In this document: positions 13,969 through 35,235 of the stretch, piece after piece
Layout: every line of letters starts with the position of its first letter
Numbering within the stretch: the stretch's first letter is position 1
Source: Oscillibacter valericigenes Sjm18-20
GTDB lineage: Bacteria > Bacillota > Clostridia > Oscillospirales > Oscillospiraceae
Assembly (NCBI GenBank): GCA_000283575.1
Contig: AP012044.1
Coordinates: 2,046,001 to 2,110,000, forward strand
Direction of reading: 5' to 3'
DNA: 64,000 bases
Position numbers and translations under genes: made by a program
Notes under the pieces: generated by a model
What the model saw: the letters and a program-made list of their open reading frames with translations, nothing else
Told to the model about the DNA's origin: nothing
Databases searched by the model: none

Positions 13969-13970
13969 AG

Positions 13971-18758: not shown

Positions 18759-18783
18759 ATATAATTCCTCCTTATCCCCCGTG

Positions 18784-20409: not shown

Positions 20410-20501
20410 TTCTATTAACTCCTTAACATATTAAAAAATATCAGTTTACTTTTCTATACTGCCAAACTCGCAGTTTCGCAGAATAAATTATATGTACAAC
20501 T

Positions 20502-21134: not shown

Positions 21135-21498
21135 TACATTTACCTCACAAAGTAAGTCGGCTTCAAAGCTTGGCCATTTCATAAACATTTGGAACCTTCT
21201 AAGCTCCGAATAGAAGAAGGTAAGTAATCAATTCCTTTAAATTCTTTAACTACGATGGATTTGATAAATGCCTTTATTTTTGGTGAAACATGCGTAATGC
21301 ACATCTCATAATTTTTATTTCTGATGAATTGAAATTTGACAATTGAATGTATGGCATTTTTATTCTTCTTGTCTATTGGTTAATAAATATCGGCTCCTGA
21401 CGTTAGGGCTTGTCATCGATAATAGGAGAACCTTTTCCAAGTGGGGTTAATATTATGATGTAATATGGCAGCTCTGCCAAAAAAAGGAGAAAATTATT
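21135..21498. other. AT-rich intergenic stretch without recognisable genes
   Basis: The 364 bp between the CPBP gene and the DUF6143-like gene hold no convincing reading frame. The Shine-Dalgarno AAAAAGGAG of the next gene lies at its right end. Confidence 0.6.
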
Positions 21499-22038: not shown

Positions 22039-22712
22039 ACCTGTCTAATTGCAAAACTATTCAAAACTCAAAAAGGTTTCAGGGCTTCTCCAAAAAATGA
22101 AAGTATCCCTGGATTTTTTTGCATCAGCGGAAGGCGCTCTGCGAATTTTAAGAGGCCAATATGTTTATGAGTATATAGCAAGCTCTCAAATATTTCAATC
22201 TAAGGTGTAGATTGAAAAGGGGAAGGCCCAATTTTAAAAACATGCTCAAAGCTACGTGGCAAAAATCTCATATAAAGAAAATTTGAAAAGCTCATGTAGG
22301 CGCTGGATCTTCACTTGCTGTCGGCAGACAATGTTAATCTGAATTCAAAGTTACTAAAACACAAGACGGAAAACTGAAACAGTTCGTGTTAAAAAGCGGA
22401 AAGTGACCGACATATTTTCACTTGATGGGGCGATGTTCACTTCTGCAAATGCGAAAAATCCGTGGAATGTGCCAATTTAGGCATCTTTTTACGCTCAATT
22501 CGGCGCTTTTACATTCACTATTTCATTTAACGTTTTAATCTGGGGCGACACCGCACACGTTTCTTCTGTGCGGTGTCGCCCTAATACTTGGTAAGGGGAG
22601 AGCGGCGGCTACTCCCCCTGTTCTGTCTTGCTGAATTTGATTTTGAGAATTATCGCAAGATATTTGAAGTTATTCGTACTATTGACGCAGATACAAACCC
22701 TGCCTGATTTTT
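22039..22712. other. Gene-poor stretch left of the cotJC breakpoint
   Basis: No full gene is seen. It holds a 15-bp perfect hairpin (listed separately). On the plus strand there is also an open frame ending at the TGA 22705-22707 whose last residues (FDFENYRKIFEVIRTIDADT) look protein-like but lack a start. This may be the 3' end of a broken gene. The frame stops 24 bp before the left 15-bp recombination site. Confidence 0.4.
22543..22581. repeat. 15-bp perfect inverted repeat (hairpin)
   Basis: GGGCGACACCGCACA (22543-22557) and TGTGCGGTGTCGCCC (22567-22581) enclose a 9-nt loop. There is no T-run on either side, so it is not a standard terminator. It is GC-rich within an AT-rich stretch, about 150 bp from the left recombination site. 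Confidence 0.7.
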
Positions 22713-22826
22713 TTATCGTTTATTGATATATGGCCCACCGTATTGACTGATGATAAGTGCCGCCAGTTTTGGATTGGTCGTTTTAATATTGACGGGATAT
22801 TGCAGCTTTTTTTCATAGACAAACAT
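22713..22826 (-). pseudogene. cotJC: Spore-coat manganese catalase CotJC, N-terminal fragment
   Basis: The ATG at 22826 overlaps the cotJA/cotJB stop (TGATG), as expected for the next gene of a cotJ operon. The 37-residue product begins MFVYEKKLQYPVNIKTTN and reaches ISQYGGP, which is the normal CotJC N-terminus. It then runs into YINKR and a stop. The missing C-terminal part lies at 33107-33622 on the opposite strand. The break falls at codons 29-32 (Gln-Tyr-Gly-Gly-Pro), within a 15-bp sequence shared by both fragments. As it stands the product cannot be functional. Joining the two halves gives a complete 198-residue protein, so the split is a rearrangement and not decay. Confidence 0.93.
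22731..22745 (-). other. Left recombination site (attL/attR-like) in cotJC
   Basis: On the minus strand this reads CAATACGGTGGGCCA. It matches CAATATGGTGGACCA at 33107-33121 (plus) at 13 of 15 positions, with GGTGG (22739-22735) as the longest common core. The two copies are in inverted orientation. Confidence 0.8.
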
Positions 22827-23281
22827 CAGCTGTTCCCTCCTTCATCCCAGGGCCACGGGTCGTTCAGCCAGGTATAGCCATCTTTTTCGGTGATGTCGGT
22901 TTGAAACAGAGGGCCGTACATCTTTTGGTACTTCTCCCGGCCTTCATTCAAAAGCTTGATATAGGACCAGTAAAGATTCAAAACCTCCTGATCCTTCGGA
23001 TGAGTGGTGAGATAAAGGCCCAGCTCATCAACAGCAAAATCCAGTGCCATCAGCTCTGCCAGCGCGGTGTTGCCGGTCTTCAGTTTGTCGGTCATCGCCG
23101 CCTTAAAGGGCAGGTTCAGCCCCGGAAACAGCGTCCCGGTCTGGAGCGCCATTGCATTGTCATAGCGGGGTGGATCCTGCTCTTGCATAGGGACATAGGG
23201 AAAAGCCAGCGGCGCGCACGGACCGGGAAGACTCCCGGCGTTCTGGCCGCAGGAATTCATTTCAGGTTTCTCCATCTGCAA
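22826..23281 (-). CDS. Fused spore-coat proteins CotJA and CotJB
   Basis: Spore-coat components of the cotJ operon, normally two small proteins. Here one 151-residue chain carries both. Residues 24-60 match CotJA (PLAFPYVPMQEQDPPRYDNA, then LQTGTLFPGLNLPF). Residues 67-150 match CotJB (ALAELMALDFAVDELGLYL, NEGREKYQKMYGPLF, and the WPWD end). The start is TTG 23281, 5 nt after AAGGAG, with ATG 23275 as an alternative. It is followed with a 1-nt overlap by the cotJC fragment. B. subtilis cotJABC is transcribed by sigma-E in the mother cell. A CATACAAT box lies 52 bp upstream. I see no frameshift that would explain the fusion. Confidence 0.88.
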   Translation of the reverse strand: MQMEKPEMNSCGQNAGSLPGPCAPLAFPYVPMQEQDPPRYDNAMALQTGTLFPGLNLPFKAAMTDKLKTGNTALAELMALDFAVDELGLYLTTHPKDQEVLNLYWSYIKLLNEGREKYQKMYGPLFQTDITEKDGYTWLNDPWPWDEGGNS

Positions 23282-23332
23282 ATAGACTCCTTCCTTTGCA
23301 TTGGTAGCGCACGGCGTCGTGCGCCTATGCCA

Positions 23333-23340
23333 TTGTATGC
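23333..23340 (-). promoter_or_regulatory. Possible sigma-E -10 element of the cotJ operon
   Basis: CATACAAT on the minus strand fits the sigma-E -10 consensus, 52 bp upstream of the coat gene. No clear -35 partner is seen at the right distance. Confidence 0.3.
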
Positions 23341-23364
23341 CGGAGAATCTGCGCAGGTACGTCT

Positions 23365-23394
23365 TGCGGGACTGAACAAAACGGTGTTATAATA
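23365..23394 (+). promoter_or_regulatory. Promoter of cwlD-radA
   Basis: TTGCGG (23365-23370), an 18-bp spacer and a perfect TATAAT (23389-23394), 77 nt before cwlD and divergent from the coat genes. Confidence 0.6.
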
Positions 23395-23470
23395 AGAACA
23401 GCAATCGCCGCGCTGTGCGCGGGTATATTGGAAAAGCCGTCTTACATATCCTTCACGGGAGGTGACGGCC

Positions 23471-24196
23471 ATGGTCGTTCTGATACGCAAGACCCATCTG
23501 GGCCTTTCCGCGCTGCTGCTGGCAGCGGTGGCCGGAATGGCATTGATCTTATGGCAGGGAAGTGGGAGTATTACCACGTTCTCATCTCTGACCGGCGGGG
23601 AACCGAGCCCCATCGTGGTGGTGGACCCCGGTCACGGCGGGGAGGACGGCGGCGCTGTGGCCGCGGACGGCACGGTAGAGAGCGGGCTGAATTTGCAGAT
23701 CGCCCAGCGGCTGAACGATCTACTTCGGTTTTTGGGGCAGGTAACGGTGATGACCCGGACTGAGGATGTTTCCATCTATTCCGACGGGGCGGAGACGCTT
23801 CACCAGAAAAAAGTGTCCGATCTTAAAAACCGGGTGGCTTTGGTGAACGGACTGGAGGATGCGGTCCTCGTCAGCATCCATCAGAACAGTCTGCCCGGTT
23901 CGCCCAAGACCCATGGCGCACAGGTGTTTTATAACGGCCTGGAACCCGCGCCCGCTCTGGCCGCGACCGTACAGGAGCGGCTGAACCAGAGCATAAACAC
24001 CGGAAACGGGAAGACGCCCAAACGTATTTCAGATTCCATCTATCTCACTAAAAATGTAACGGCCCCGGCAATCATCGTAGAGTGCGGGTTTCTCTCAAAT
24101 GGAGAGGATACGGCCCACTTGCAGGAGCCGGGGTATCAGTTGCAGCTGGCGGTGGCGGTAGCCGCTGGATACTTATCTACGGAGGAAACGCCATAA
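23471..24196 (+). CDS. cwlD: N-acetylmuramoyl-L-alanine amidase, CwlD type
   Basis: Amidase_3 enzyme that removes stem peptides from muramic acid, the first step in making the muramic-delta-lactam of spore cortex. ATG 23471 lies 7 nt after GGGAGGTGA. An N-terminal signal anchor (about residues 9-28) exports it. Zinc ligands are visible in VDPGHGGEDGG (His, about residue 53), the Glu in DGTVESGLNL and the second His in VSIHQNS. The catalytic Glu is in IVECGFLSN. The 241 residues fit CwlD. The stop overlaps nothing; radA starts at the very next base, so the two are translationally coupled. Both genes sit inside the possible 10.4-kb inversion. Confidence 0.88.
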   Translation: MVVLIRKTHLGLSALLLAAVAGMALILWQGSGSITTFSSLTGGEPSPIVVVDPGHGGEDGGAVAADGTVESGLNLQIAQRLNDLLRFLGQVTVMTRTEDVSIYSDGAETLHQKKVSDLKNRVALVNGLEDAVLVSIHQNSLPGSPKTHGAQVFYNGLEPAPALAATVQERLNQSINTGNGKTPKRISDSIYLTKNVTAPAIIVECGFLSNGEDTAHLQEPGYQLQLAVAVAAGYLSTEETP

Positions 24197-25591
24197 ATGA
24201 AGGCAAAAACAGTGTTTTACTGCACGGAGTGCGGGAATGAGACGCCAAAGTGGGCGGGAAAGTGCCCCGCCTGCGGCGCGTGGAATACGGTGGTGGAACG
24301 CCCAGCGGAGGCCGCGCCGAAAAAGTCCCGGGGAATCGGGAAAGCCGCGGCCTCGGTGATCCCTGCGATGGGAATTTCCCACCGCGCCCGGCCCGTGACG
24401 GATTTGGAAACCGCATCGGAGATTCGTTTTCCAACCGGCATGGGAGAGCTGGACCGGGTTCTGGGTGGTGGTGCAGTCAAGGGATCGCTGGTGCTGGTGG
24501 GCGGCGCGCCCGGCATCGGAAAATCCACGTTGATGCTGCAAATTTGCAGTAAGCTGTGTGAGTTTTCCAAGGTCCTGTATGTATCCGGCGAGGAATCGGA
24601 ACACCAGCTGAAACTCCGTGCAAAGCGGCTGGACGTGGAGAGCGAACAGCTGTTCGTAATCTCAGAGACCTGTCTGGGGGATGTTTTGGAGACCGTGGCG
24701 GAGGAACAGCCGGACATTCTTATCATTGACTCCATCCAGACTCTTTATAACGATGCGCTGGAATCTCCCGCCGGGAGCGTGGGGCAGGTGAAAGACTGCA
24801 CCATGGCCCTGATGCAGCTGGCAAAGGGGCGGGAGATCACCGTATTCGTCATCGGACACGTAAATAAGGAGGGGTCTATCGCCGGACCGAAGGTTCTCGA
24901 ACATATGGTTGATTGCGTGCTGTATTTTGAGGGAGACCAGCACAGCTCCTACCGCATCCTGCGAGCGGCCAAAAACCGCTTTGGCGCCACCAATGAGATC
25001 GGCGTATTTGAGATGGAGGACGCGGGACTGCACGAGGTGGAAAATCCCTCGGAAATGCTTTTGGCTGGCCGTCCGGCGGACGCGCCGGGGACCTGCGTCA
25101 CCTGCGTGATGGAGGGGGTGCGGCCCGTGCTGGCGGAGATCCAGGCGCTGATCGCCCCCAGCAGCTACGGCACGCCCCGCCGCACTAGCAACGGCTTTGA
25201 CTACAACCGGGCCGCCATGCTGATTGCAGTGCTGGAAAAGCGGGGCGGGCTGAAGCTCTCCACCTGCGACACGTATCTGAACATCATTGGAGGATTATGG
25301 CTGGACGAGCCCGCCGCCGATCTGGCCGCCTCCGTGGCGCTGGCATCCAGTTATCTGGACCAGCCCATTCCCAGCGATCTGGTGGCCATCGGGGAGGTGG
25401 GACTGACAGGAGAACTGCGTAGCGTCAGCCAACTGAGCCAGCGGATAAATGAGGTGCAACGGCTCGGTTTCAAGCGATGCCTGATCCCGGAGCACCGCTC
25501 TCAGACGCTCCATGCGCCGTCGGGTCTGGAGCTGATTCCGGTGCGGAATATTGGGGAGGCTCTCCGGGCCGTGATGCACAAACAGGGATGA
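24197..25591 (+). CDS. radA: DNA repair protein RadA
   Basis: A RecA-like ATPase that helps branch migration during recombinational repair. All family landmarks are visible in its 464 residues: an N-terminal C4 zinc finger (CTECGNETPKWAGKCPACG, residues 9-27), Walker A GGAPGIGKST (about 100), the RadA-specific KNRFG motif (about 258) and a C-terminal Lon-protease-like domain (from about 290). The start ATG directly abuts the cwlD stop. The 3' end is overlapped on the other strand by a small cysteine-rich frame. Confidence 0.96.
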   Translation: MKAKTVFYCTECGNETPKWAGKCPACGAWNTVVERPAEAAPKKSRGIGKAAASVIPAMGISHRARPVTDLETASEIRFPTGMGELDRVLGGGAVKGSLVLVGGAPGIGKSTLMLQICSKLCEFSKVLYVSGEESEHQLKLRAKRLDVESEQLFVISETCLGDVLETVAEEQPDILIIDSIQTLYNDALESPAGSVGQVKDCTMALMQLAKGREITVFVIGHVNKEGSIAGPKVLEHMVDCVLYFEGDQHSSYRILRAAKNRFGATNEIGVFEMEDAGLHEVENPSEMLLAGRPADAPGTCVTCVMEGVRPVLAEIQALIAPSSYGTPRRTSNGFDYNRAAMLIAVLEKRGGLKLSTCDTYLNIIGGLWLDEPAADLAASVALASSYLDQPIPSDLVAIGEVGLTGELRSVSQLSQRINEVQRLGFKRCLIPEHRSQTLHAPSGLELIPVRNIGEALRAVMHKQG

Positions 25592-25703
25592 AGTGGACGC
25601 AGCCGCCGTCCGTGGGTGGTACTCCCGCCGCCGCTGCACAGTCCAGACCGCACAGTCCGTCTTTCTGGTAGATGCAGGGGGAGGTACATGGAATGAGGCC
25701 CAT
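25470..25703 (-). CDS. Small cysteine-rich protein overlapping the radA 3' end
   Basis: The first 40 residues form a compact cysteine pattern: CTSPCIYQKDGLCGLDC and GGCVHF. This is a type seen in short Clostridia proteins, often mislabelled hydroxymyristoyl-ACP dehydratase (recalled). ATG 25703 has only a weak ribosome binding site (AGGAAACGG). Usually these proteins end soon after the last Cys. Here the frame continues 35 residues into sequence antisense to radA (122 bp overlap), suggesting the original stop was lost. The N-terminal part is probably real; the tail probably is not functional. Confidence 0.5.
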   Translation of the reverse strand: MGLIPCTSPCIYQKDGLCGLDCAAAAGVPPTDGGCVHFIPVCASRPGEPPQYSAPESAPDPTAHGASESGAPGSGIA

Positions 25704-25813
25704 AAAATTCAGTCCGTTTCCTATAATTTTGTATGTCCATAGGCGGTTTGACCTTTCACAATAGGATGTACCGGAAGAGCCGAGTTTATGTTTAGTGAAA
25801 GGATGGAAAACGC

Positions 25814-25966
25814 ATGTTCGAGTCTGCTGATTTGAGTTGGCAATCCGGCATCTCATCTTTCAATTTGTTTTATCGACAACGAACTGCCGGGAAAGCTGAA
25901 ACCGTTCAGCAGCGTTTTGCGGTGGGCGCTGATATTCGCGCCCGGGTTGGGAAGGCATACAGATAA
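25814..25966 (+). CDS. Possible 50-residue protein
   Basis: An open frame starting at ATG 25814 with AAAGGA 11 nt upstream, giving a basic soluble product (SSFNLFYRQRTAGKAETVQQ in the middle). Unrecognised. A competing antisense frame covers the same bases. Low confidence; listed because it fills the gap between radA and the recombinase gene. Confidence 0.3.
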   Translation: MFESADLSWQSGISSFNLFYRQRTAGKAETVQQRFAVGADIRARVGKAYR

Positions 25967-26315
25967 AGTATTTGAAAGGCAGTAATGATTGAACAAAATA
26001 AAAATTTTGTTCAAAACAGGGGGGCACAAATTTATAGAAACTGCTATTTGGGCCAAGTTTACTATGTGCATCCAAGCCGGTCGAACTTTTTCCGTTTTAC
26101 CTGCACCATCCGTAAGAATGATGTTTCGACAGCGGGATTTGCGGTTTTGTCAATGCATCCATCTGCCGCCATCTGCTTCCGTACAGCGACTTGCTCTTTT
26201 TGAGCATAGATCGTTCTCCGCTGATTTAAGCGGATTTTTATGAAGACTTCATCAATTTCAAATCGTTCCATGTGTTAGAAATTTTAAAGATATATCAAAT
26301 ATTGAAGGTGATTTT
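25967..26315. other. AT-rich intergenic stretch before the tyrosine recombinase gene
   Basis: No clear gene. A 36-codon minus-strand frame (26097-26207) has a fair ribosome site (GGAG, 8 nt) but no recognisable product. A hairpin CCGCT/AGCGG followed by ATTTTT (about 26217-26238, plus strand) looks like a small terminator. Confidence 0.35.
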
Positions 26316-27323
26316 TTGAATGATTACCGAACTGAAGCGCCGCCGGTTTTGCGGGACTTTCTGGCTTACCATGAGACTATCAAGGCTCACTCAAGACGAA
26401 CCGTGGACGAGTATTTTCTGGATCTGCGGAACTTTTTCCGTTACATGAAGCAGATCCGGGATCCGTCGATGAAGGACAAACGGCTGGATGAGATCTCGAT
26501 TCTGGACGTGGATCTAAACTTTGTTAAATCCGTAACACTTACGGATATTTATGGCTACATGACTTATCTCAGTCGCGACCGCGTTCAGCATCAAAACAGT
26601 TCTTTTTCGGATTACGGACTAAACGCAGCATCAAGAGCGCGAAAAATTGCCACTTTTCGGTCCTTTTATAATTATTTGACCAATAAAGTCCATTTGATCT
26701 CTGAAAATCCCGTCAAGGACATCGACTCCCCCAAGACGATGAAATCATTACCAAAATACTTGACTTTGGACCAGAGTATTCAGCTTTTGGAGTCTGTGGA
26801 TGGCAAAAACCGTGAGCGGGACTACTGCATTCTGACACTGTTCCTCAACTGTGGCCTGCGAATTTCAGAGCTGGTAGGGTTGAATTTGAATGACATTCAG
26901 GGCGAGGCGCTACGGGTTCTGGGTAAGGGTAACAAGGTCCGCATTGTTTATCTGAACGATGCATGTGAGGATGCCCTGCGGCAGTATCTGGCGGTGCGGC
27001 GGCCCATCGTGGGACGCGATTGCAGCGCTGTGTTTCTGTCGGAGCAAAATAAGCGCATCAGCCGCTCCGGCGTTCACGCACTGGTGAAAAAGCATCTGGC
27101 CGAAGCCGGACTGGATGCGACGGAATACTCCGCCCACAAACTCCGCCATACTGCCGCAACACTGATGCTTCAAAACGGTGTGGACGTGAAGGCTGTGCAG
27201 GAGGTTTTGGGCCACGAACACCTGAATACGACTGAAATCTATACGCATATTGACAATGAAGCGCTCCGCGTTGCTGCAAAGGCAAATCCCTTGTCGCATA
27301 TTACTAATACTGATAAAAATTGA
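26316..27323 (+). CDS. Tyrosine recombinase, XerC-like
   Basis: A 335-residue site-specific recombinase. An N-terminal SAM-like core-binding domain (about 10-140) precedes the catalytic domain. The catalytic residues are seen: Arg in NCGLRISELVGL, HxxR in HKLRHTAAT, the second His in VLGHEHLNTT and Tyr in EIYTHIDNEAL. The start is TTG 26316 behind GAAGGTGA. It could be the XerC partner of the XerD at 53.5 kb in chromosome dimer resolution, or an element integrase. The full set of Xer features and its own terminator favour the first. It lies inside the segment bounded by the inverted cotJC sites, but the serine recombinase is the better candidate for those. Confidence 0.88.
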   Translation: MNDYRTEAPPVLRDFLAYHETIKAHSRRTVDEYFLDLRNFFRYMKQIRDPSMKDKRLDEISILDVDLNFVKSVTLTDIYGYMTYLSRDRVQHQNSSFSDYGLNAASRARKIATFRSFYNYLTNKVHLISENPVKDIDSPKTMKSLPKYLTLDQSIQLLESVDGKNRERDYCILTLFLNCGLRISELVGLNLNDIQGEALRVLGKGNKVRIVYLNDACEDALRQYLAVRRPIVGRDCSAVFLSEQNKRISRSGVHALVKKHLAEAGLDATEYSAHKLRHTAATLMLQNGVDVKAVQEVLGHEHLNTTEIYTHIDNEALRVAAKANPLSHITNTDKN

Positions 27324-27349
27324 AAATTTTTTTAGGCATCAATTTATAA

Positions 27350-27394
27350 AACAGGCGCTATGCATTCAAGTAAATGCGTAGCGCCTGTTTTTAT
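27350..27394 (+). terminator. Terminator of the tyrosine recombinase gene
   Basis: AAACAGGCGCTATGCATT pairs with AATGCGTAGCGCCTGTTT with a short AT loop and a following T-run; 27 bp after the stop. Confidence 0.85.
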
Positions 27395-27527
27395 TGAAGG
27401 CACTTCCCTGCCCTACTCAAATGATTATTCGGGTGAAAAAGCGGCTGGTGGTAGAAGAATGCTAAAAGCATTTCTAAAAAAGCCTTTTCCCGCATAAAAA
27501 TGATACCTATGAGGATTTGATATTTAA

Positions 27528-27722
27528 TTACCACAGAGAACCGCCAAGCACTACGCCGTTGCCTCGACGGCCCTTGGAATTTGTAGCGGTGTAATACAAA
27601 TTTAAGGAGGCCCCGGCGGAACTGGGGGTATCAACGCTGACGACGGTTTGTGCTATTGCACCCCATGCGCCCGGGCTTGGGTGAAGTGCTGCACCGCCGT
27701 TGCAGACGTGGAGGATATCACC
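27528..27722 (-). pseudogene. C-terminal remnant of a phage-structural-like protein
   Basis: A minus-strand frame of 64 codons without a start, closed by an in-frame stop upstream (27723-27725). Its product has a beta-rich, tail-fibre-like look: ILHVCNGGAALHPSPGAWG, TVVSVDTPSSAGASLNLYYT and a final GNGVVLGGSLW. It meets a plus-strand remnant at about 27.71 kb, suggesting a deletion joined two gene ends. The assignment to phage is an impression from composition only. Confidence 0.4.
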
Positions 27723-27794
27723 TTATGGCGCAGAATTCCGGAGGACTTGGCGGTGCACATGGCCACGGTGCTGGGAGGCGGCAGTAATGCGTAA
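27708..27794 (+). pseudogene. Gene tail coupled to the next membrane-protein gene
   Basis: A 28-codon open tail (EDITLWRRIPEDLAVHMATV) ends at TAA 27792-27794 and overlaps the ATG of the following gene at 27787, as in a tightly packed phage or element operon. No start is seen. Confidence 0.35.
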
Positions 27795-28251
27795 AGCTGG
27801 AGACGTGATTCTTTCCGGGCTGCTGGGGTGCTTTGTCGGGAGTACATACTTTCTCATTGAGGTGGCGTGGAAGACCGCGCAGGGCCACCCCGAGGGCATC
27901 AGCTGGACGATGCTGGTGCTGGCGCTGGGGCTTGGCATCCTCATGGAGCGCATGGGGGCGGAGCTTCCGTGGCGGTGCCCGATTTGGGCGCAGGCGATTT
28001 TATGCGGCGCGGCCATAACGGCGGCCGAGTTCATCACCGGGTGCATCCTGAATCTCTGGCTGGGCTGGGGCGTGTGGGACTACTCCGACCTGCCCGGAAA
28101 CCTGCTGGGGCAAATTTGCCCGCAGTTTGCCGTGCTGTGGTGCATCGTCAGCGGGCCGATGATCGTGCTGCTGGACTGGATGCGGTACGCGGTCCGGGGC
28201 GGCGAGAGGCCGCGATATTACTGGAAGCAGCGTTCGTCATCTTGCAGATAA
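27787..28251 (+). CDS. Putative ABC-transporter-type membrane protein (CmpB/PF06541-like)
   Basis: A 154-residue protein with four or five hydrophobic segments (about 7-28, 38-56, 68-92, 100-118, 120-138). The pattern WAQAILCGAAITAAEFITGC followed by LWLGWGVWDYSDLPGN is what I recall of the small 'putative ABC transporter permease' family. That family is common in Firmicutes chromosomes and prophages. ATG 27787 overlaps the preceding gene tail; AGGCGGC supplies a weak ribosome site. No ATPase partner is nearby. Confidence 0.6.
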   Translation: MRKAGDVILSGLLGCFVGSTYFLIEVAWKTAQGHPEGISWTMLVLALGLGILMERMGAELPWRCPIWAQAILCGAAITAAEFITGCILNLWLGWGVWDYSDLPGNLLGQICPQFAVLWCIVSGPMIVLLDWMRYAVRGGERPRYYWKQRSSSCR

Positions 28252-28289
28252 AAAAGACCGCCCCGGTTAAGGGACGGTTATGGTTACAG

Positions 28290-28724
28290 TTATAAATATT
28301 CGCGCAAATCCATACGCAAGTGATCTTCAGTAAAAATGAGCTCCTTACAAATGCTTTTTGCTGTATTGTCTGCTGCGCTATATTGGTTCAGATACTTATT
28401 TAGGGATTTAGAACCCATGTTGCATCCATCCGTCATTAAACCGGCAACAGCAGCATCCGTATCATCCATACCAAGCTTCAAATTTGTCTTCATCCAAGAC
28501 ATGCTCTTTGCAATGGGATTGGGATCTTTTTCATCGCTTCCCAAAGTTCTAAGTTGACTGTGCGCAGCATTTCCAAGCTTTTCGTGTTGTTCTTTACTTT
28601 GGGTGAGCAAATTTTTCAGCTTGGAGTCATGAACTTTATCCAATACCTCGCCAATGGAGTCAACCGCCATTTTTGTACCAGCGTCGCATTCACGAAGCAA
28701 TTCTACCGTATCTGTGTTTGCCAT
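28290..28724 (-). CDS. Four-helix-bundle protein, ferritin-like (DUF2383-like)
   Basis: A 144-residue all-helical soluble protein starting at ATG 28724 behind GGAGG. Helices are suggested by TDTVELLRECDAGTKMAVDS, KLKNLLTQSKEQHEKLGNAA, the segment around SMSWMKTNLKLGM and the terminal KSICKELIFTEDHLRMDL. Similar four-helix-bundle proteins are annotated in anaerobic Firmicutes; metal-binding residues are not conclusive. It is convergent with the upstream membrane-protein gene and divergent from tspO. Confidence 0.55.
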   Translation of the reverse strand: MANTDTVELLRECDAGTKMAVDSIGEVLDKVHDSKLKNLLTQSKEQHEKLGNAAHSQLRTLGSDEKDPNPIAKSMSWMKTNLKLGMDDTDAAVAGLMTDGCNMGSKSLNKYLNQYSAADNTAKSICKELIFTEDHLRMDLREYL

Positions 28725-28875
28725 TGAACAACCTCCACTCAAAATATAAAAATAGATTGTGAAAATTATCTAAAATTATGCAAAACTTTATCTGGAGCGT
28801 TTCTTAAAAGTCAGACAGCTCGTGCGTTCACAAAATATCCAGTTAAATCAGCCATATTTTCAGGAGGAGCAAGCG

Positions 28876-29343
28876 ATGAAAAAGAAGTTTTGGAAACCCT
28901 ATGCTGCTTTCATTTTGTTCAATCTGGCTGCATCCGGCCTTGTTGGCTGGGCTACTTCCGGTGCAATGAAAGCATATGAATCCGTCAAAAAATCGTCTTT
29001 GACACCGCCATCGTTTGTGTTCCCAATTGTATGGACCCTTCTGTATACGCTTATGGGAATCAGCGCCGCCATGATCTATCAATCCGAGTCTCCTTACAGA
29101 AAGCGTGCCCTAACAATCTATTTCATACAGCTACTGGTCAATCTCGTCTGGAGTTTTCTTTTTTTCAATCTGCAAATGTATGGTCTTTCATTTTTCTGGC
29201 TTCTGCTTCTGCTTGTTTTGATTTTTGATATGATTGTTACATTTTATTCAATTAACCGGGCAGCGGCTCTTTTACAGATTCCATACCTTATCTGGGTAGC
29301 TTTTGCCGGGTACCTCGCTTATTCGGTCTGGATATTAAACTGA
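28876..29343 (+). CDS. tspO: TspO/MBR family protein
   Basis: A five-helix tryptophan-rich sensory protein that binds porphyrins and sterols in other organisms; its role in Firmicutes is unsettled. ATG 28876 follows AGGAGG. The signature parts are there: an N-terminal GW helix, then LTPPSFVFPIVWTLLYTLMG (helix 2) and LVNLVWSFLFFNLQ (helix 3). The 155 residues match the family. It is a single gene with its own terminator, in the accessory part of the segment between the cotJC halves. Confidence 0.92.
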   Translation: MKKKFWKPYAAFILFNLAASGLVGWATSGAMKAYESVKKSSLTPPSFVFPIVWTLLYTLMGISAAMIYQSESPYRKRALTIYFIQLLVNLVWSFLFFNLQMYGLSFFWLLLLLVLIFDMIVTFYSINRAAALLQIPYLIWVAFAGYLAYSVWILN

Positions 29344-29366
29344 TCTTAACGGAATTTCTTTGGGTT

Positions 29367-29398
29367 CCTACCGCCCCGCTTGGGGCGGTAGGTTTGTA
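29367..29398 (+). terminator. Terminator of tspO
   Basis: CCTACCGCCCC (29367-29377) pairs with GGGGCGGTAGG (29382-29392) with a 4-nt loop, followed by TTTGT. Confidence 0.75.
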
Positions 29399-29642
29399 TA
29401 AATCCGACTAATCCGCCTCCGGCGGGTCAGAACGGGTTCTTGCCCACCGTTATCCGTACTGCTCTGACTTTTTCTGAAGCGCCGCGGAAAATGTGATGCT
29501 TGTCCAGCGGGTCCGCGCAGCCATTCCGGCCGCACAACCACAGCAAGCATGCGGGATATATCCGCCTTTACCTTTTTTGTCTTGCTTATGCCGCCTCTGG
29601 CGGACATACTCTTGGGGTACATCGCATTTTGCGCTTCCCTCC

Positions 29643-30113
29643 TCAGTCTCCGTCCTCGTTTTCCGATGGTTTTTGCATAAGTTCAATCGCACGGTTGATT
29701 TTTTTCGTTCGACGATAGGCGTTATCATCCAACTCCAGACGAGGGGCCGACGTTTCACGGTCTCTTACCTGCACATTGATCTGGCCGACTGCGATATAGA
29801 GCGCTTCGCAGACCCGATCCAGCATAGGATATCCCATTCTGGTAAGGTCAAAGGGTGTCACCGCGCATTTGCTGTTCCAGGAAAACAGATTGTGCGCCAC
29901 GTCGACGAGTTGCCCGGTACGCTCATCAAAGCCTCGTGCCGCCCGCTTGATTCCGGCAAAATCAATTCCGTTACCGCTGATAAACGGAGCGGCGGCGTTC
30001 GTCAGCTCCGTATTGGTGGCGAGTAAGTAAAGCGCCGCCTGATAGGATGGATCGCTTATCTGCGCCTGACGGTGCAGCAGGGTCTCCAGCTTTAAGTAAT
30101 TTTGTGCCTGCAT
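29643..30113 (-). CDS. Hypothetical protein of the integrative-element type
   Basis: A 156-residue soluble protein with ATG 30113 behind AAAGGAGG. The segments SDPSYQAALYLLATNTELTN, NGIDFAGIKRAARGF and VDVAHNLFSWNSK recall the small DUF6075-like proteins carried by Firmicutes mobile elements (recalled, low certainty). It lies 15 bp downstream of another small gene on the same strand. GC-rich and unlike the AT-rich genes nearby. Confidence 0.6.
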   Translation of the reverse strand: MQAQNYLKLETLLHRQAQISDPSYQAALYLLATNTELTNAAAPFISGNGIDFAGIKRAARGFDERTGQLVDVAHNLFSWNSKCAVTPFDLTRMGYPMLDRVCEALYIAVGQINVQVRDRETSAPRLELDDNAYRRTKKINRAIELMQKPSENEDGD

Positions 30114-30128
30114 CGCGGTGTCCTCCTT

Positions 30129-30332
30129 TTATGCGCCATGCCCGGATTTCTTCGGAGCCTTTTCAATGCGGAACACGGCTTTTCCCCGGAAAAGCGCGTT
30201 CAGATACGTCACCTTCAGCGCCGCGCCGATGTCGCTTCGTTTTTCCTGCGGCAGCGTGTCAATATTCACTTCCTGCCCGTCTACGGTCACAAACGCCTCC
30301 ACCCGGATTGGTTCCCGCTGCCTCTTCGCCAT
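30129..30332 (-). CDS. Small hypothetical protein of the integrative-element type
   Basis: A 67-residue basic protein (start AKRQREPIRVEAFVTVDG, then LPQEKRSDIGAALKVTYLNA) beginning at ATG 30332 after GGAGGTGAGGGC. It sits first in a two-gene unit with the 156-residue gene. The pairing of such small genes beside serine recombinases is common in Clostridia elements. Function unknown. Confidence 0.6.
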   Translation of the reverse strand: MAKRQREPIRVEAFVTVDGQEVNIDTLPQEKRSDIGAALKVTYLNALFRGKAVFRIEKAPKKSGHGA

Positions 30333-30802
30333 GCCCTCACCTCCGTTCAGTCTATGGTGTTCCCGGATTGTCCTATGCCTTCCTGCGCTCCCGCAGCGTT
30401 CTCAAATTCGAACCTTCCATTTTTTTGAAGCCTTCCTCTTGACGGTGGTCCTTCCGCCGTGTAAACTTGTGTTATGTGTTATCCTGCTGTTCGTATAAGC
30501 TTCTTGCATTTGTAAGAAGCCGGCTTGATTTCTTCTACGCATTATACAAAAACAGCACCGCCAAACTGGCGATGCTGTCTAAAATGGAAAACCATTGACT
30601 TTCCTGGATTTCGTGGGCTTTGATACGTCTTAATTCGGCGCTTCCCTCCTTCCCAGTAATTGAGACATTTCCTCCAAACATCGTTTCCTTCCCGCATCCC
30701 TTCCTGTGCACCAGATCCTAAGCCTATAGCGATTCTCAATTTGTTCGACATGAAATTTGCATGGTTGGATAAGTTAATAATTAAAAGGAGATGGAATACA
30801 CC
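30333..30802. other. Intergenic stretch upstream of the recombinase operon
   Basis: The 470 bp hold no convincing gene. There is a hairpin CAGCACCGCCA/TGGCGATGCTG (about 30553-30577), and AT-rich DNA with AAAAGGAG just before the next gene. Confidence 0.5.
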
Positions 30803-31240
30803 TTGCAAAAATATCGTGATATCGACGCAACTCCAATGGCTTATTACAAATTTCTCACTAGATTTGCATTGATTCTCGACCTGATTCTTACCGTCTGTTG
30901 TACGGTTTATATGATTCTCAATAATCCATATTGGGTAGATATTCTGTACAGTGTCGCGGTTGTCGTACTGGAACTGGTATGTCTCATATGGTTATGGAAA
31001 ATGAAATGGAAAGGAGTTTTGGCCCTTTACGCGGGCTATTTACTTTCCATACTTTACAAAGTAGTTACAATTGTTCAATGTATAAATGACGGGACCGATT
31101 TTAGTTTTTCCGTTGGTCAACTAAATTCCGTATTGGTAATTGCAGTTCTTACATGGGTTTACTTCAATAAGCGTCGCTTTTTGTTTTCACCGATACCGCC
31201 ATGGGGAGACGAGGGAGACGTTATAATTACTAAAAAATGA
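30803..31240 (+). CDS. Four-helix membrane protein, unknown function
   Basis: A 145-residue protein with four hydrophobic segments (about 18-38, 45-66, 72-92, 106-122) and a charged C-terminus. I prefer TTG 30803, 8 nt after AAAAGGAGATGG; the ATG at 30791 lies inside that site. It is the first of three closely spaced plus-strand genes ending in the serine recombinase (gaps of 12 and 4 bp), so it is probably cotranscribed with it. Not recognised. Confidence 0.65.
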   Translation: MQKYRDIDATPMAYYKFLTRFALILDLILTVCCTVYMILNNPYWVDILYSVAVVVLELVCLIWLWKMKWKGVLALYAGYLLSILYKVVTIVQCINDGTDFSFSVGQLNSVLVIAVLTWVYFNKRRFLFSPIPPWGDEGDVIITKK

Positions 31241-31252
31241 GAGGAGTTTTCC

Positions 31253-31624
31253 GTGAACAACGAAGATAAGATTTTAGAATTGCTGGAACAGCAGGGTTCG
31301 CAAATGACAAAAATCAGTGCCGATATCTCCGCGCTGACAGGAGATGCCTCCTCCCTAAAAGCGGATGTTTCCTCATTGACAGGAGATGTCTTTACAATGA
31401 AAGCGGATATTTCTGACCTCAAGGACAGAATTTCCAAGGTGGAAATTACCCAGGAGAATGTAGTTCTGCCGCAGATTCAGGCGATTGCCGAGGGGGTCTC
31501 CACCGTGAATAATAAACTGATCGCCCGCAGCGAGCTGGATTCCATAAAAGAAGAAATGGCCTTTTTGAAAGACATTATCCGGATGCACACCAACCAGCTG
31601 AATGACCTCAAAAAGGCGCGATAA
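31253..31624 (+). CDS. Coiled-coil protein with tandem repeat, next to the recombinase
   Basis: A 123-residue protein predicted to be almost entirely coiled coil (heptads from residue 5 to about 65 and again 85-120). It begins with GTG 31253 after GAGAGGAG. Two consecutive repeat units read SALTGDASSLKADV and SSLTGDVFTMKADI, visible also as a DNA repeat near 31337-31410. It ends 4 bp before the recombinase start, so the two are translationally linked. Small coiled-coil proteins could act as an accessory or directionality factor, but nothing in the sequence proves this. Confidence 0.7.
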   Translation: MNNEDKILELLEQQGSQMTKISADISALTGDASSLKADVSSLTGDVFTMKADISDLKDRISKVEITQENVVLPQIQAIAEGVSTVNNKLIARSELDSIKEEMAFLKDIIRMHTNQLNDLKKAR

Positions 31625-31628
31625 TCCC

Positions 31629-33086
31629 ATGCCCGACGAATATAAAACAGCCGCCGCGTACATCCGGGTCAGCACGGAAGACCAGGTGGAGCTGTCCCCT
31701 GCCAGCCAGCTTGTGGAGATTCGCAAGTGGGCGGAAAAAAACGGCTGGATTGTCCCGGACGAGTATGTGTTTGTGGACGAGGGAATTTCCGGGCGAAAGG
31801 TCACGGGCCGGGACGCCTTCCGCCACCTGATCGGCACGGCCAAATTGAAGCCGAAGCCCTTTGATGCGATTTTGCTCTGGAAGTTCTCCCGGTTTGCCCG
31901 TAACCGGGACGACGCGGTTTTTTATAAATCCGTTCTGCGCAAGCAGCTCCACATTGAAGTCATTTCCATCAGCGAGCCGATTGCCGAGGGAAAGCTGGGC
32001 ATCCTCATGGAAGCCCTGATTGAGGCCATGGACGAATACTATTCTATCAACCTTGCCGAGGAGGTTAAGCGCGGCATGGCGGAAAAGCATCGCCGGGGTG
32101 AGCTGCAATCCAACCCCTCCTTCGGCTATACGGTGCAAGATAATGTGCTGGCTCCGCAGGAGCCGGAGGCAACCTACATAAAAGCGATTTTCCGCCGTTT
32201 CTGTGAGGGGGAAGGCTGCTTCTCCATCGCCAAATGGCTCAACTCCATCGGCGTCCGGACGCACCGAGGGAATCTTTTTGAGAATCGCACCGTAGAGTAT
32301 ATTCTTCGCAATCCGGTCTATATAGGAAAGCTCCGATGGAATCCCGCCGGCATTTCCCACCGCGATTTTACGAATCCCGACATTGTGCTGGCAGATGGAA
32401 AGCACGAACCGCTGATTGATATGGATACCTGGAACATCGCCCAGTCCCGCATGGCGAAGCTGAAAGCCACATGGAAATATCACGGGCGGCCTCTTGGCAG
32501 CAATAAGGACTGGATATCCAGCCTGATCCGCTGTTCTGCCTGCGGCGCCACGATGATCTTTGCAAAGCCGAACTACTGGAAGTGCAACAACTACGTCCGG
32601 GGCCGCTGTAAAACCTCCCAGCACGTCTCCACCGATCTTTTGAAAGAGGCCATCATTCGCCGCCTGCAAATTGACCTTGAAACCGACTTCCCCATCCAGT
32701 ATGAAGTGATTCGGGCAAAAGGCGACGGCGAAGATGAATTGAACGCATTGCGCACCCAGCGGGATTCCCTCGCCAAAAAGATGGACCGTCTGCGTGACGC
32801 CTACCTTGCCGGAGCCGACACGGTGGAAGAATACAAGGCCGCGAAAGAGTCCACGCAGGGAAAGCTGGCCGACGTGAATGCTCAAATCAAAACGGCAGAA
32901 AAAAGAAGCACCAAACTCGGTGCTCCCGCTGTTATGAAAAAAACCATCCGTTCTACCCTGAAAACCATCGCCTCTGACTCCGCCACCATGGAGCAAAAGT
33001 CCGAAGCCGCCCACTCCATCATAGAATACGCCACCTGGGACAAAGCCCAAAACCTCCTGCAAATACATTACCGCCTGACTTTTTAG
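31629..33086 (+). CDS. Large serine recombinase
   Basis: Site-specific recombinase of the phage integrase/skin-element type, 485 residues from ATG 31629. The resolvase domain (1-150) has the catalytic Ser15 in AAYIRVSTEDQ, then FVDEGISG and WKFSRFARN. The recombinase domain (about 160-270) includes RGELQSNPSFGY and RNPVYIGKLRWN. A zinc ribbon (about 298-335; CSACG and CNNYVRGRC) and a long coiled coil (about 375-440) complete the standard layout. It appears intact. It ends 20 bp before the right 15-bp site in cotJC, the usual position of an integrase next to its attachment site. It is therefore the prime candidate for having moved the cotJC halves apart. Excision or reverse inversion would normally also need a directionality factor. 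Confidence 0.95.
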   Translation: MPDEYKTAAAYIRVSTEDQVELSPASQLVEIRKWAEKNGWIVPDEYVFVDEGISGRKVTGRDAFRHLIGTAKLKPKPFDAILLWKFSRFARNRDDAVFYKSVLRKQLHIEVISISEPIAEGKLGILMEALIEAMDEYYSINLAEEVKRGMAEKHRRGELQSNPSFGYTVQDNVLAPQEPEATYIKAIFRRFCEGEGCFSIAKWLNSIGVRTHRGNLFENRTVEYILRNPVYIGKLRWNPAGISHRDFTNPDIVLADGKHEPLIDMDTWNIAQSRMAKLKATWKYHGRPLGSNKDWISSLIRCSACGATMIFAKPNYWKCNNYVRGRCKTSQHVSTDLLKEAIIRRLQIDLETDFPIQYEVIRAKGDGEDELNALRTQRDSLAKKMDRLRDAYLAGADTVEEYKAAKESTQGKLADVNAQIKTAEKRSTKLGAPAVMKKTIRSTLKTIASDSATMEQKSEAAHSIIEYATWDKAQNLLQIHYRLTF

Positions 33087-33106
33087 TTTGCTTTCGTAGC
33101 CTTTTA

Positions 33107-33121
33107 CAATATGGTGGACCA
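33107..33121 (+). other. Right recombination site (attL/attR-like) in cotJC
   Basis: CAATATGGTGGACCA, inverted copy of the site at 22731-22745 with 13 of 15 identities. The core GGTGG is at 33113-33117. To its right the cotJC frame continues without a break. Confidence 0.8.
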
Positions 33122-33622
33122 CACGGAGAGTTGGGCGCGTCACTGCGGTATCTGAGTCAGCGATACTCCATGCCCTATCCCGAGCTGAAGGGGTTGTTGA
33201 CCGACATCGGCACTGAGGAACTGGGGCATCTGGAGATGGTGGGAACCATCGTTCACCAGCTGACGCGAAACCTCAGTGAAAAGGATATCAAGGAGGGCGG
33301 CTTCGCCCCTTATTTCATCGATCACACCGCTTCGGTCTACCCCACCGCCGCCTCCGGCTCCCCCTGGAGCGCGGACGGCATCGCCGTCACCGGTGATACC
33401 ATCGCGGACCTGACCGAGGATTTGGCCGCAGAGCAAAAAGCCCGATTGACCTATGACAACATCCTGCGCGTGAGTGATGACCCGGATGTTACCGACGCCA
33501 TCCGTTTCCTACGGGCAAGAGAAATCGTCCACTTCCAGCGCTTCGGCGAGGGACTGCGGCTCACCAGGGACAGGCTGAACGAGAAAAATGTGTACTACAT
33601 GAATCCGTCCTTCGACAAGTAA
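33107..33622 (+). pseudogene. cotJC: Spore-coat manganese catalase CotJC, C-terminal fragment
   Basis: The frame from CAA 33107 reads QYGGPHGELGASLRYLSQRY and continues for 172 codons to TAA 33622. It keeps the dinuclear-manganese ligand region (LTDIGTEELGHLEM) and the second four-helix-bundle half (EEQKAR-like AAEQKARLTYDNI, then AREIVHFQRFGEG). It has no start codon of its own; TTG 33131 is in frame but lacks a ribosome site. Joined to the minus-strand fragment at 22713-22826 through GGTGG it gives a complete 198-residue CotJC. The product belongs to the inner spore coat and is a catalase relative. The reading frame is undamaged, which argues for a recent or reversible split. Confidence 0.93.
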
Positions 33623-33677: not shown

Positions 33678-35235
33678 GTAGACAAAGTATCAGAGAAATG
33701 ATGCTTTGTCTTTTTTTAGTGCTTAGAAGATGGTAAAATAGAAGCAGGTGATAAAAGATGGTGAACCAAAAAGGTGAAGACAGCCGGAAGCAGATCGGCT
33801 TTTACTGCATGGAGGATTTGGTTCCAAAAGACCATCTTCTCAGGAAAATCGAAAAAGCAATTGATTTCAGTTTCATATATGATTTGGTGAAAGGCAGGTA
33901 CAGCGAAGATACGGGCCGTCCAAGTATTGATCCTGTAGTGCTGTTCAAGATCGTGTTCATCCAGTATCTATTTGGAATCCGCAGCATGCGGCAGACGATC
34001 AAAGAAATCGAGGTCAATGCGGCATATCGCTGGTTTTTGGGATATGACTGGAACGATCCGATCCCTCATTTTACGACCTTTGGAAAAAATTATTCCCGGC
34101 GGTTTGAGGGCACCGATATTTTTGAGAAAATATTCGCCCGTATCCTGCTGGAAGCGGTGAAGCTGAAGTATGTGGACCCGAAGGCGGTGTTCATTGATTC
34201 CAGGCATATCAAGGCCAGCGCCAACCGAAACAGGAAAATGAAGGTGCAGGTTCAGGAAGAGGCCCGGCATTACCAAAAAGAGTTGATGGAGGAAATCAAC
34301 AAGGACCGGGAGGTTCATGGGAAAAAGCCATTTGACGATGACGACTCGGGAAAAGGCGGCGGGGCCGGACAGACTAAAGAGATCGAAAAAAGCACCACCG
34401 ATCCGGAGTGCGGCATGTTCCACAAAGGGGAGCATGGAAAATGTTTCGCCTACACCGCGCACACAGCCTGCGACCGGCACAACTTCATCCTTGGCGTAGA
34501 ACTTTCCCCCGCCAACGTCTATGACAGCGTGATGTTCAAAAGCATTTATGACAAAGTAAAGGCCACGTTCCCTGAAATCAAGTACGTTGTTGCCGACGCT
34601 GGTTACAAGATCCCATATATCTGCAAACAGATTCTGGACGACCACCGAATTCCGGTTTTGCCTTACAAAAGGCCGATGAGCAAAAAAGGATATTTCAAGC
34701 CCTACGAATATGTATACGACCAATATTACGACTGTGTTCTCTGCCCAAACAACCAGGTTCTGCGCTACTCAACCACAAACCGTGACGGATACCGGGAATA
34801 CAAAAGCGACCCCAAAATCTGCAAATGCTGTCCGAAACGGGCGCAGTGCACGCAGAGTAGGAACTGTCAGAAAACTGTAACGCGGCATGTATGGGCGAAC
34901 GATCTGGACGTCGCGGAAGATTTTCGCCACACATCGCGGGGAAAAGCAATTTACCGGGAGCGTGCGGAAACCATCGAACGGGTTTTCGCCGACGCAAAAG
35001 AAAAACATGGGTTGAGATATACTACCTTACGGGGCAAAGCCAAAGTGACGATGCAGGCTTTGCTCACTTTCGCCTGCATGAATCTCAAAAAGCTGGCAAT
35101 CTGGAAATCGGAAGGCCCCAGGTTCAAGCCCAAATACGATTTTCCCTTTCTCTTTTTCCTGCTATTTGTTCCCAATTCGATTATTCGCATGAAAAACGCC
35201 GCTTGGGTCTGAATCCCAAACGGCGTTTTGTCTAC
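33678..35235 (+). mobile_element. IS1182-type insertion sequence
   Basis: One intact transposase gene is framed by terminal inverted repeats: GTAGACAAA at 33678-33686 and its complement TTTGTCTAC at 35227-35235. The right end also has a hairpin AACGCCG..CGGCGTT just after the transposase. Clear target duplications are not seen. Length about 1.56 kb. Confidence 0.75.
33758..35212 (+). CDS. IS1182-family transposase
   Basis: A DDE transposase of 484 residues that appears intact. The N-terminal domain (QIGFYCMEDLVPKDHLLRKI, GRPSIDPVVLFKIVFIQYLF) matches DUF772-type transposases. Catalytic residues are probably Asp in VFIDSRHIKASAN, Asp in VVADAGYK and Glu in RAETIERVFADAKEKHGLRY. A cysteine cluster (CVLCP, CKCCPKRAQC) precedes the last. 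The start ATG 33758 has a weak ribosome site (GCAGGTG). The intact frame suggests recent activity. Confidence 0.93.
   Translation: MVNQKGEDSRKQIGFYCMEDLVPKDHLLRKIEKAIDFSFIYDLVKGRYSEDTGRPSIDPVVLFKIVFIQYLFGIRSMRQTIKEIEVNAAYRWFLGYDWNDPIPHFTTFGKNYSRRFEGTDIFEKIFARILLEAVKLKYVDPKAVFIDSRHIKASANRNRKMKVQVQEEARHYQKELMEEINKDREVHGKKPFDDDDSGKGGGAGQTKEIEKSTTDPECGMFHKGEHGKCFAYTAHTACDRHNFILGVELSPANVYDSVMFKSIYDKVKATFPEIKYVVADAGYKIPYICKQILDDHRIPVLPYKRPMSKKGYFKPYEYVYDQYYDCVLCPNNQVLRYSTTNRDGYREYKSDPKICKCCPKRAQCTQSRNCQKTVTRHVWANDLDVAEDFRHTSRGKAIYRERAETIERVFADAKEKHGLRYTTLRGKAKVTMQALLTFACMNLKKLAIWKSEGPRFKPKYDFPFLFFLLFVPNSIIRMKNAAWV

What the first reader, a model, noticed from the sequence alone, without database searches (positions are those of the whole stretch)
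22713..33622. Spore-coat catalase gene cotJC is split into two inverted halves that one recombination would restore
The N-terminal 31-32 codons (minus, from 22826) and the C-terminal 166 codons (plus, to 33622) of one cotJC lie 10.3 kb apart on opposite strands. The frames meet exactly at a shared 15-bp sequence, CAATAyGGTGGrCCA. Joining them through GGTGG gives Gln-Tyr-Gly-Gly-Pro-His-Gly-Glu-Leu in perfect frame and a 198-residue protein of normal length. Known sporulation-gene interruptions (sigK skin elements and similar) are restored by excision. Here the site orientation means inversion of a 10.4-kb segment. If active, this would be a recombinase-driven inversion switch of a spore-coat gene.
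Basis: partly seen in the sequence, partly recalled or inferred. Interest (0 to 1): 0.93.

Follow-up and report, generated by a model that had tools for sequence, protein, structure and literature searches.

The report
Split spore-coat gene mended by flipping
In a clam-gut clostridium (by exact genome size, Oscillibacter valericigenes) a spore-coat enzyme gene is cut in two at the attachment site of a phage-type integrase, and because the two attachment sites lie in opposite orientation the integrase would likely rejoin the gene by flipping a 10-kb stretch of chromosome, whereas the split spore genes described in the papers consulted are mended by cutting the inserted element out.

Summary
The only cotJC in this finished genome is split at codon 32 into an N piece (22731-22826, -) and a C piece (33107-33622, +), 10.4 kb apart on opposite strands. 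Joined at GGTGG they give an intact 198-aa protein. A large serine recombinase (LSR, 31629-33086) of phage-integrase type ends 20 bp before the C piece. Of the 80 best LSR relatives, 73 abut a cotJC cut near codon 32. Two viral contigs carry an intact attP right after the LSR, like the one predicted by joining the window's two half-sites. So this is the LSR system of a skin-like gene-interrupting element. What is odd is the geometry: attL and attR are inverted, so the same enzyme (plus a directionality factor, not identified) would restore cotJC by inverting, not excising. Among 46 same-contig cotJC junctions from 294 genomes, 43 are direct, 2 inverted (this one and G202 = Pseudoflavonifractor phocaeensis An569) and 1 permuted. 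Oscillibacter ruminantium has the ordinary, excisable form. Activity is untested, and the strain is described as non-sporulating, so a stranded relic is the main rival. The searches listed returned no paper on a split cotJC or on inversion-type spore-gene repair.

The parts
22731..22826 (-). cotJC 5' piece, codons 1-32 (Mn catalase, PF05067)
   Evidence: identical in protein to the O. ruminantium piece (32 of 32)
22706..22745 (-). attL: core CAATACGGTGGGCCA plus phage-side (P') arm TATATCAATAAACGATAA
   Evidence: arm set beside other cotJC elements and free phage attP
22826..23281 (-). cotJA-cotJB fused ORF, upstream partner of cotJC
   Evidence: PF11007 and PF12652
23462..24196 (+). cwlD-type amidase, inside the segment that would flip
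   Evidence: PF01520; TIGR02883 below its cut-off
24197..25591 (+). radA-like gene, inside the segment
   Evidence: Zn-ribbon, KaiC/RecA-type ATPase and Lon_C matches; the name rests on recall of RadA's make-up
26316..27323 (+). XerC/D-type tyrosine recombinase, last host gene of the inverted block
   Evidence: PF00589; TIGR02224 below its cut-off; followed by the same other gene in O. ruminantium, G023 and G075 but not here
27700..31624 (.). element body: CmpB-like (27700-28251 +), DUF2383-like (28290-28742 -, below the Pfam cut-off), TspO (28822-29343 +), 156-aa (29643-30113 -), 149-aa (30791-31240 +) and 123-aa (31253-31624 +) ORFs
   Evidence: relatives of TspO and DUF2383 lie just upstream of the LSR in other cotJC elements (L177, L161); left boundary near 27.4 kb is inferred
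30129..30332 (-). 67-aa ORF, candidate recombination directionality factor (inferred)
   Evidence: homologue in the 4 nearest LSR relatives L100, L101, L102, L109 and in L103, L104, L108, L122 and G001; no Pfam, PHROG, NCBIfam or PDB match
31629..33086 (+). large serine recombinase, 485 aa
   Evidence: Resolvase + Recombinase + Zn_ribbon_recom; PHROG 95 integrase E 2e-100
33083..33121 (+). attR: phage-side (P) arm, GTAGCCTTTTA and neighbours, plus core CAATATGGTGGACCA
33107..33622 (+). cotJC 3' piece (codons 28-198 including the shared core)
33758..35212 (+). IS1182-family transposase between cotJC 3' piece and ligA; 15 near full-length copies in the genome, this one included
   Evidence: NF033551 above cut-off; copies
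35272..37248 (-). ligA, normal downstream neighbour of cotJC
   Evidence: directly next to the cotJC 3' piece in G014 and G033

Best explanation
cotJC is split at the attachment site of a large serine recombinase belonging to an apparently phage-derived, skin-like element, and because its two attachment sites lie in inverted orientation the recombinase would likely rebuild the gene by flipping a 10.4-kb segment instead of excising the element. Shown by sequence: the LSR next to the 3' piece, matching attL and attR half-sites, the in-frame 198-aa joined product, and an ordinary direct element at the same codon in O. ruminantium. Inferred: the element first entered cotJC codon 32 in the usual way; later rearrangements flipped the block carrying cotJC-N, cotJA-JB, cwlD, radA and the XerC-like gene; since then attL x attR recombination, with a directionality factor (candidate: the 67-aa ORF), would give inversion, most likely in the mother cell, where cotJC is expressed in B. 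subtilis. Inversion would re-form attB (intact cotJC) and attP, lose no DNA, and could be reversed by the LSR alone.
For: (1) The LSR family favours this codon: the scan found 145 relatives and kept the best 80; 73 of the 80 have a cotJC piece cut near codon 31-36 starting within 700 bp of the LSR end (3 of the 73 with looser alignment ends). Of the other 7, four end within 64 bp of the LSR, two end after 738-824 bp without cotJC, and one has a cotJC piece 855 bp away. (2) Joining the window's outer half-sites predicts an attP matching, at 34 of 58 positions, the intact attP that follows the LSR in viral contig L180 (2000 shuffles: mean 15, max 26). (3) The two differences between the core copies place the crossover in GGTGG; those of O. 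ruminantium allow the same place (within GGTGGTCCG). (4) O. ruminantium (G014) has the closest LSR (75% identity), the same site and a direct 5.2-kb element between radA-cwlD-cotJAB and ligA. (5) Both cotJC pieces are under strong constraint against O. ruminantium: dN/dS 0.015 and 0.025 (radA 0.032, cotJA-JB 0.087, LSR 0.088). (6) A second inverted case, G202, at another site (codon about 150), with a site-3 LSR next to its 3' piece and a frame-preserving join. (7) The C. difficile skin LSR inverted DNA between attP and attB placed in opposite orientation on a plasmid (PMC5025042, passages).
Against: No read or experiment shows the flipped form. The strain is reported as non-sporulating by microscopy and heat test (PMC3558957, parts 1 and 2 of 3 read). 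No directionality factor is identified. The dN/dS values average over the whole divergence from O. ruminantium and cannot date the inversion or prove constraint after it. The LSR's synonymous divergence from O. ruminantium (dS 1.79) is higher than that of radA, cotJA-JB and the 5' piece (0.73-0.90) or the 3' piece (1.15), so the two elements may have been acquired separately and O. ruminantium need not show the direct ancestor. Of 46 same-contig junctions only 2 are inverted, as accidents would also give. Between 22065 and 22825, left of and across attL, no ORF of 60 aa or more is listed, and the three plus-strand frames are broken.
Confidence: 0.6

Rival explanations
1. Stranded relic: the rearrangement separated the halves in a lineage that no longer sporulates, the recombinase is not used, and cotJC is a pseudogene.
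For: Non-sporulating phenotype reported, with cotF, cotS and yabQ not found; 15 near full-length IS1182 copies and large-scale rearrangement against O. ruminantium; no ORF of 60 aa or more beside attL.
Against: Both halves, cotJA-JB and the LSR are open, and the joined protein differs from O. ruminantium's at 6 of 198 residues, one of them at a column fixed in all 11 outgroups; at four further fixed columns both species share the change. Both att sites are well formed; the paper reports spo0A and all sporulation sigma factors.
Confidence: 0.3
2. Reversible switch unrelated to sporulation: the LSR and a factor flip the segment at low rate in growing cells, giving a mixed population.
For: With inverted sites neither direction loses DNA, so flipping is reversible in principle; LSR alone inverts between opposed attP and attB in the C. 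difficile system (passages).
Against: The published assembly shows one orientation; serine-recombinase elements in sporulation genes are described as needing a directionality factor for excision (PMC5595907 and PMC6957869, passages); the target is a coat gene with no obvious use in growing cells (inference).
Confidence: 0.06
3. Assembly error: the segment is misoriented and the element is really in the ordinary direct, excisable arrangement.
For: Inverted arrangements are rare (2 of 46 same-contig junctions).
Against: Finished Sanger genome with 4.6-kb and 40-kb paired clones and an optical map. The block's outer neighbours are also rearranged: the gene that follows the XerC-like gene in O. 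ruminantium, G023 and G075 lies about 101 kb beyond the 3' piece here, and sequence on the other side belongs to a region about 185 kb from cotJC in O. ruminantium, so simply re-flipping the block does not recover the relatives' order.
Confidence: 0.04

Closest known systems
skin element of sigK (B. subtilis, C. difficile)
   Same: A mother-cell sporulation gene is split in a restorable frame by an element with its own serine recombinase (passages; details of B. subtilis skin recalled).
   Different: Target is cotJC, and the half-sites are inverted, so recombination predicts inversion, not excision.
SPbeta in spsM, gin in gerE, yin in yabG, element in spoVFB
   Same: Elements with serine recombinases inside late sporulation genes, gene rebuilt when the element leaves (abstracts and passages).
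   Different: Described as excised; cotJC has 0 occurrences in the gin and yin papers.
cotJC-interrupting elements of Oscillospirales (this work), e.g. O. ruminantium GH1
   Same: Same LSR family, same codon 32, similar att arms, LSR ending beside the 3' piece.
   Different: Direct orientation, 5.2 kb, excisable in principle; here inverted, 10.4 kb, with host genes inside the segment.
Pseudoflavonifractor phocaeensis An569 (G202; contig length 157,431 and LSR position as in L114)
   Same: A cotJC junction (codon about 150) whose halves are inverted, with an LSR ending beside the 3' piece; the join keeps the frame.
   Different: Other att site and other LSR group (58% to the G033 site-3 LSR), 57 kb, and a second, direct junction at codon 32; draft assembly.
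Serine-invertase phase switches (Hin/Gin type)
   Same: Inversion between inverted sites by a serine recombinase is the predicted outcome.
   Different: 485-aa phage-integrase type with Recombinase and Zn-ribbon domains and attP/attB-type sites, not a small invertase with an enhancer (features of Hin/Gin recalled).

Membership tests
Large serine recombinase / phage integrase | Resolvase + Recombinase + zinc-ribbon domains in a long protein | tested here: met
   PDB matches include TP901-1 and A118 integrases
Large serine recombinase / phage integrase | attP with two arms around a core shared with attB, beside the LSR gene | tested here: met
   predicted attP of window and G014, and intact attP in viral contigs L180, L181
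skin-like sporulation-gene intervening element | splits a sporulation gene so that att recombination restores the frame | tested here: met
   198-aa join at all 6 crossover positions tried
skin-like sporulation-gene intervening element | attL and attR in direct orientation, so the element is excised | tested here: not met
   cores on opposite strands at 22731-22745 (-) and 33107-33121 (+); met in G014
skin-like sporulation-gene intervening element | encodes its own directionality factor | tested here: inconclusive
   conserved 67-aa ORF only; no family or structure match
skin-like sporulation-gene intervening element | recombination occurs in the mother cell during sporulation | not testable with these tools
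   needs reads or PCR
Small serine-invertase switch (Hin/Gin) | recombination sites in inverted orientation | tested here: met
Small serine-invertase switch (Hin/Gin) | small (about 180-200 aa, recalled) invertase | tested here: not met
   485 aa with C-terminal integrase domains
CotJC manganese catalase | PF05067 over its cut-off, downstream of cotJA-cotJB | tested here: met
   both pieces over the cut-off when scanned alone; CotJA and CotJB domains upstream

The most novel reading that the evidence does not exclude
A sporulation gene that is switched on by inversion: in O. valericigenes, and independently in P. phocaeensis An569, skin-like elements in cotJC have become permanent inversion switches, in which the phage integrase rebuilds the coat gene by flipping 10-57 kb of host chromosome, nothing is ever lost, and the same enzyme can reset the split.
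Probability: 0.4. Interest if true: 0.87.

Novelty: new variant of a known kind. Interest (0 to 1): 0.74.

Why it matters
Programmed DNA rearrangement in spore formers is known, in the papers consulted, as excision of an element. An inversion form would show that what selection keeps is a recombinable pair of sites, not an excisable element, and would give a reversible version of a normally terminal event. The survey behind it also points to cotJC as a frequent integration target with three att sites across the order and a phage-integrase family that favours one of them, which makes host control of phage integrases during sporulation testable in gut bacteria.

Tried and rejected
Rejected: chance repeat (homologous codons, matching arms and an adjacent LSR); a second intact cotJC (none found); the IS1182 copy as cause of the split (it lies outside both att sites). 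Considered: that the LSR itself made the inverted arrangement. The 5' piece keeps the phage-side arm of attL, so the rearrangement break seems to lie outside the att site, which speaks for an unrelated break; the order of events stays open. The 17-bp exact inverted repeat between the ends of the XerC-like gene and the LSR (27196-27212 / 33045-33061) could have played a part, but I found no order of events in which it gives the present layout. G071 (draft) also has cotJC pieces in an unusual order on two contigs, not resolved. G280 (single contig) has two pieces on one strand about 675 kb apart in permuted order, not resolved.

Data dropped or limited: the ligA row of the dN/dS table used a wrong stretch of G014 and is not used. 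In one search TspO matches weaker than 1e-15 were not printed. Left out were genomes with one partial piece only, G097 and G291 (pieces adjacent or within about 90 bp, no element), and weak codon 12-83 or similar hits of a second gene. Of the 89 junctions, 43 had their halves on different contigs and say nothing on orientation. In the LSR tree 71 rows were used: rows with a stop inside or under 420 aa were dropped, and the tool flagged long branches.
Full report
What is there. The 5' end of cotJC (32 codons) lies at 22731-22826 on the minus strand, straight after a fused cotJA-cotJB ORF; the rest lies at 33107-33622 on the plus strand. The genome search found no other cotJC. A 15-bp sequence, CAATAyGGTGGrCCA, is shared by the two broken ends, and joining through GGTGG gives one protein of 198 residues at all 6 crossover positions tried. 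The genome is 4,470,622 bp with a chromosome of 4,410,036 bp; these sizes are exactly those of O. valericigenes Sjm18-20, finished by Sanger with three clone libraries and an optical map (PMC3558957, parts 1 and 2 of 3 read). The same paper reports that spores were not detected but that spo0A and all sporulation sigma factors are present.

What splits it. Twenty bases before the 3' piece ends a 485-aa large serine recombinase (31629-33086). A scan of genome contigs found 145 relatives and kept the best 80. In 73 of these 80, a cotJC piece broken near codon 31-36 starts within 700 bp of the recombinase's end: in 42 the 3' piece follows in the same direction (3 of them with looser alignment ends), in 31 the 5' piece faces it. 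Of the other 7, four contigs stop within 64 bp, two stop after 738-824 bp without cotJC, and one has a cotJC piece 855 bp away. In all 6 of the 80 loci on which a 5' piece and a later piece were both found (L100, L105, L110, L174, L176, L177) they are in direct orientation. Of 31 relatives in viral contigs, 6 show a cotJC piece beside the recombinase, and L180 and L181 (65% identity) carry an uninterrupted attP right after it. The attP predicted from the window by joining attR's and attL's outer arms matches that of L180 at 34 of 58 positions (2000 shuffles: mean 15, max 26). So the split is the attachment site of a phage-type integrase.

The ordinary form. Its cotJC is split at the same codon by a direct 5.2-kb element with the closest recombinase (75-76%), between radA-cwlD-cotJAB and ligA. 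About 1.8 kb of that element reads N. In the window the recombinase, attR and 3' piece keep this arrangement, but the block cotJC-N, cotJA-JB, cwlD, radA and the XerC-like gene is inverted. Outside, more has moved: the gene that follows the XerC-like gene in O. ruminantium, G023 and G075 lies about 101 kb beyond the 3' piece here, and the sequence to the left belongs near a rex-like gene (name recalled), which is about 185 kb from cotJC in O. ruminantium. The history is therefore probably at least two rearrangements; I cannot order them. The recombinases of the two species differ more at synonymous sites (dS 1.79) than the genes around them (0.73-1.15), so the elements may have been acquired separately; O. 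ruminantium then shows the ordinary form, not strictly the ancestor.

How it would work. Serine integrases need a directionality factor for excision (PMC5595907 and PMC6957869, passages). The product depends on site orientation: the C. difficile skin recombinase alone removed DNA between direct attP and attB and inverted it between opposed ones on plasmids (PMC5025042, passages). In the window attL and attR are opposed, so the predicted product is inversion of 22.7-33.1 kb with cotJC restored and attP re-formed at the other end. This step is inferred. The directionality factor is not identified; a 67-aa ORF (30129-30332) is conserved in the four nearest relatives and five more loci and is a candidate only. 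cotJC belongs to the mother-cell sigma-E regulon in B. [quoted passage not shown]

How unusual it is. I searched the Mn_catalase family in 294 genomes of genus, family and order. In 76 of them I took down two or more cotJC pieces, giving 89 junctions: 20 at codon 32, 41 near codon 65, 28 near codon 150. For 43 the halves are on different contigs. Of the 46 on one contig, 43 are direct (element length 1.9-60.5 kb, median 8.9 kb), 2 inverted, 1 permuted. The second inverted case is G202; its contig length (157,431) and recombinase position are those of P. phocaeensis An569 (L114). There the codon-150 junction is inverted over 57 kb, with a site-3 recombinase ending beside the 3' piece and a frame-preserving join. 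It is another site and another recombinase, so the inverted state arose at least twice, if the draft is right.

For and against function. Both cotJC pieces are under strong constraint against O. ruminantium (dN/dS 0.015 and 0.025; radA 0.032, cotJA-JB 0.087, recombinase 0.088), and the joined proteins differ at 6 of 198 residues, one of them at a column fixed in all 11 outgroups; at four more such columns both species share a change. This cannot tell whether constraint outlived the inversion. Against function: non-sporulating phenotype, many IS copies, and no read data. I put the inversion mechanism at 0.6 and the dead relic at 0.3.

Novelty. Searches for cotJC with skin element, recombinase, prophage or insertion site, and for inversion with sporulation-gene repair listed no paper that by title, abstract or the passages I opened deals with a split cotJC or inversion-type repair; one search held 17,890 papers of which 12 were listed. 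The nearest is a C. difficile paper in which prophage phi027 lies beside, not inside, a cotJC-like gene (PMC11222575, passages). Most subscription papers are not in that library. I call it a new variant of a known kind.

Noticed in passing
L100-L179 and window LSR: The recombinase's polarity relative to cotJC (pointing into the 3' piece or at the 5' piece) changes about 15 times on the LSR tree (at least 14 forced by well-supported branches; shuffled mean 21; 64 labelled rows of 71), though the labelled ones sit near one codon; free attP-like cores in viral contigs also seem to occur in both polarities (by eye). How the core is turned so often is unexplained.
   Followed up: partly
76 of 294 genomes: cotJC is interrupted at three separate sites (near codons 32, 65 and 150), sometimes two at once (e.g. 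G022, G058, G206, G219, G224); this looks like a major integration hot spot in Oscillospirales, not met in the papers searched.
   Followed up: partly
L094 (G071:C4:288900-289260), L092, L093: In draft genome G071 the middle cotJC piece starts with what looks like a complete phage-side arm right after the stop codon of ligA, while the 5' and 3' pieces lie on another contig in permuted order; the codon-65 core there is the palindrome GGTACC.
   Followed up: partly
L214, L215 (G280:C1): Single-contig genome with cotJC 5' piece (codons 1-63) and 3' piece (61-198) on one strand about 675 kb apart in permuted order; joining them would split the chromosome.
   Followed up: no
window 33758-35212: IS1182-family element with 15 near full-length copies (98-99% identity, this one included) in the genome; one copy sits between the cotJC 3' piece and ligA, another 90 kb to the right near a synteny break.
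   Followed up: partly
window 27196-27212 and 33045-33061: Exact 17-bp inverted repeat between the 3' ends of the XerC-like gene and the recombinase gene, flanking the element body.
   Followed up: partly
window 27700-28251: CmpB-like membrane gene with four further copies of 82-89% identity in the genome and one in O. ruminantium near a thioredoxin-reductase-like gene (name recalled); possibly mobile cargo.
   Followed up: no
window 13969-22700: About 8.7 kb between tRNA-Arg(ccg) and attL has no nucleotide match in the O. ruminantium, G061 or G075 stretches compared; possibly an island at the tRNA gene.
   Followed up: no
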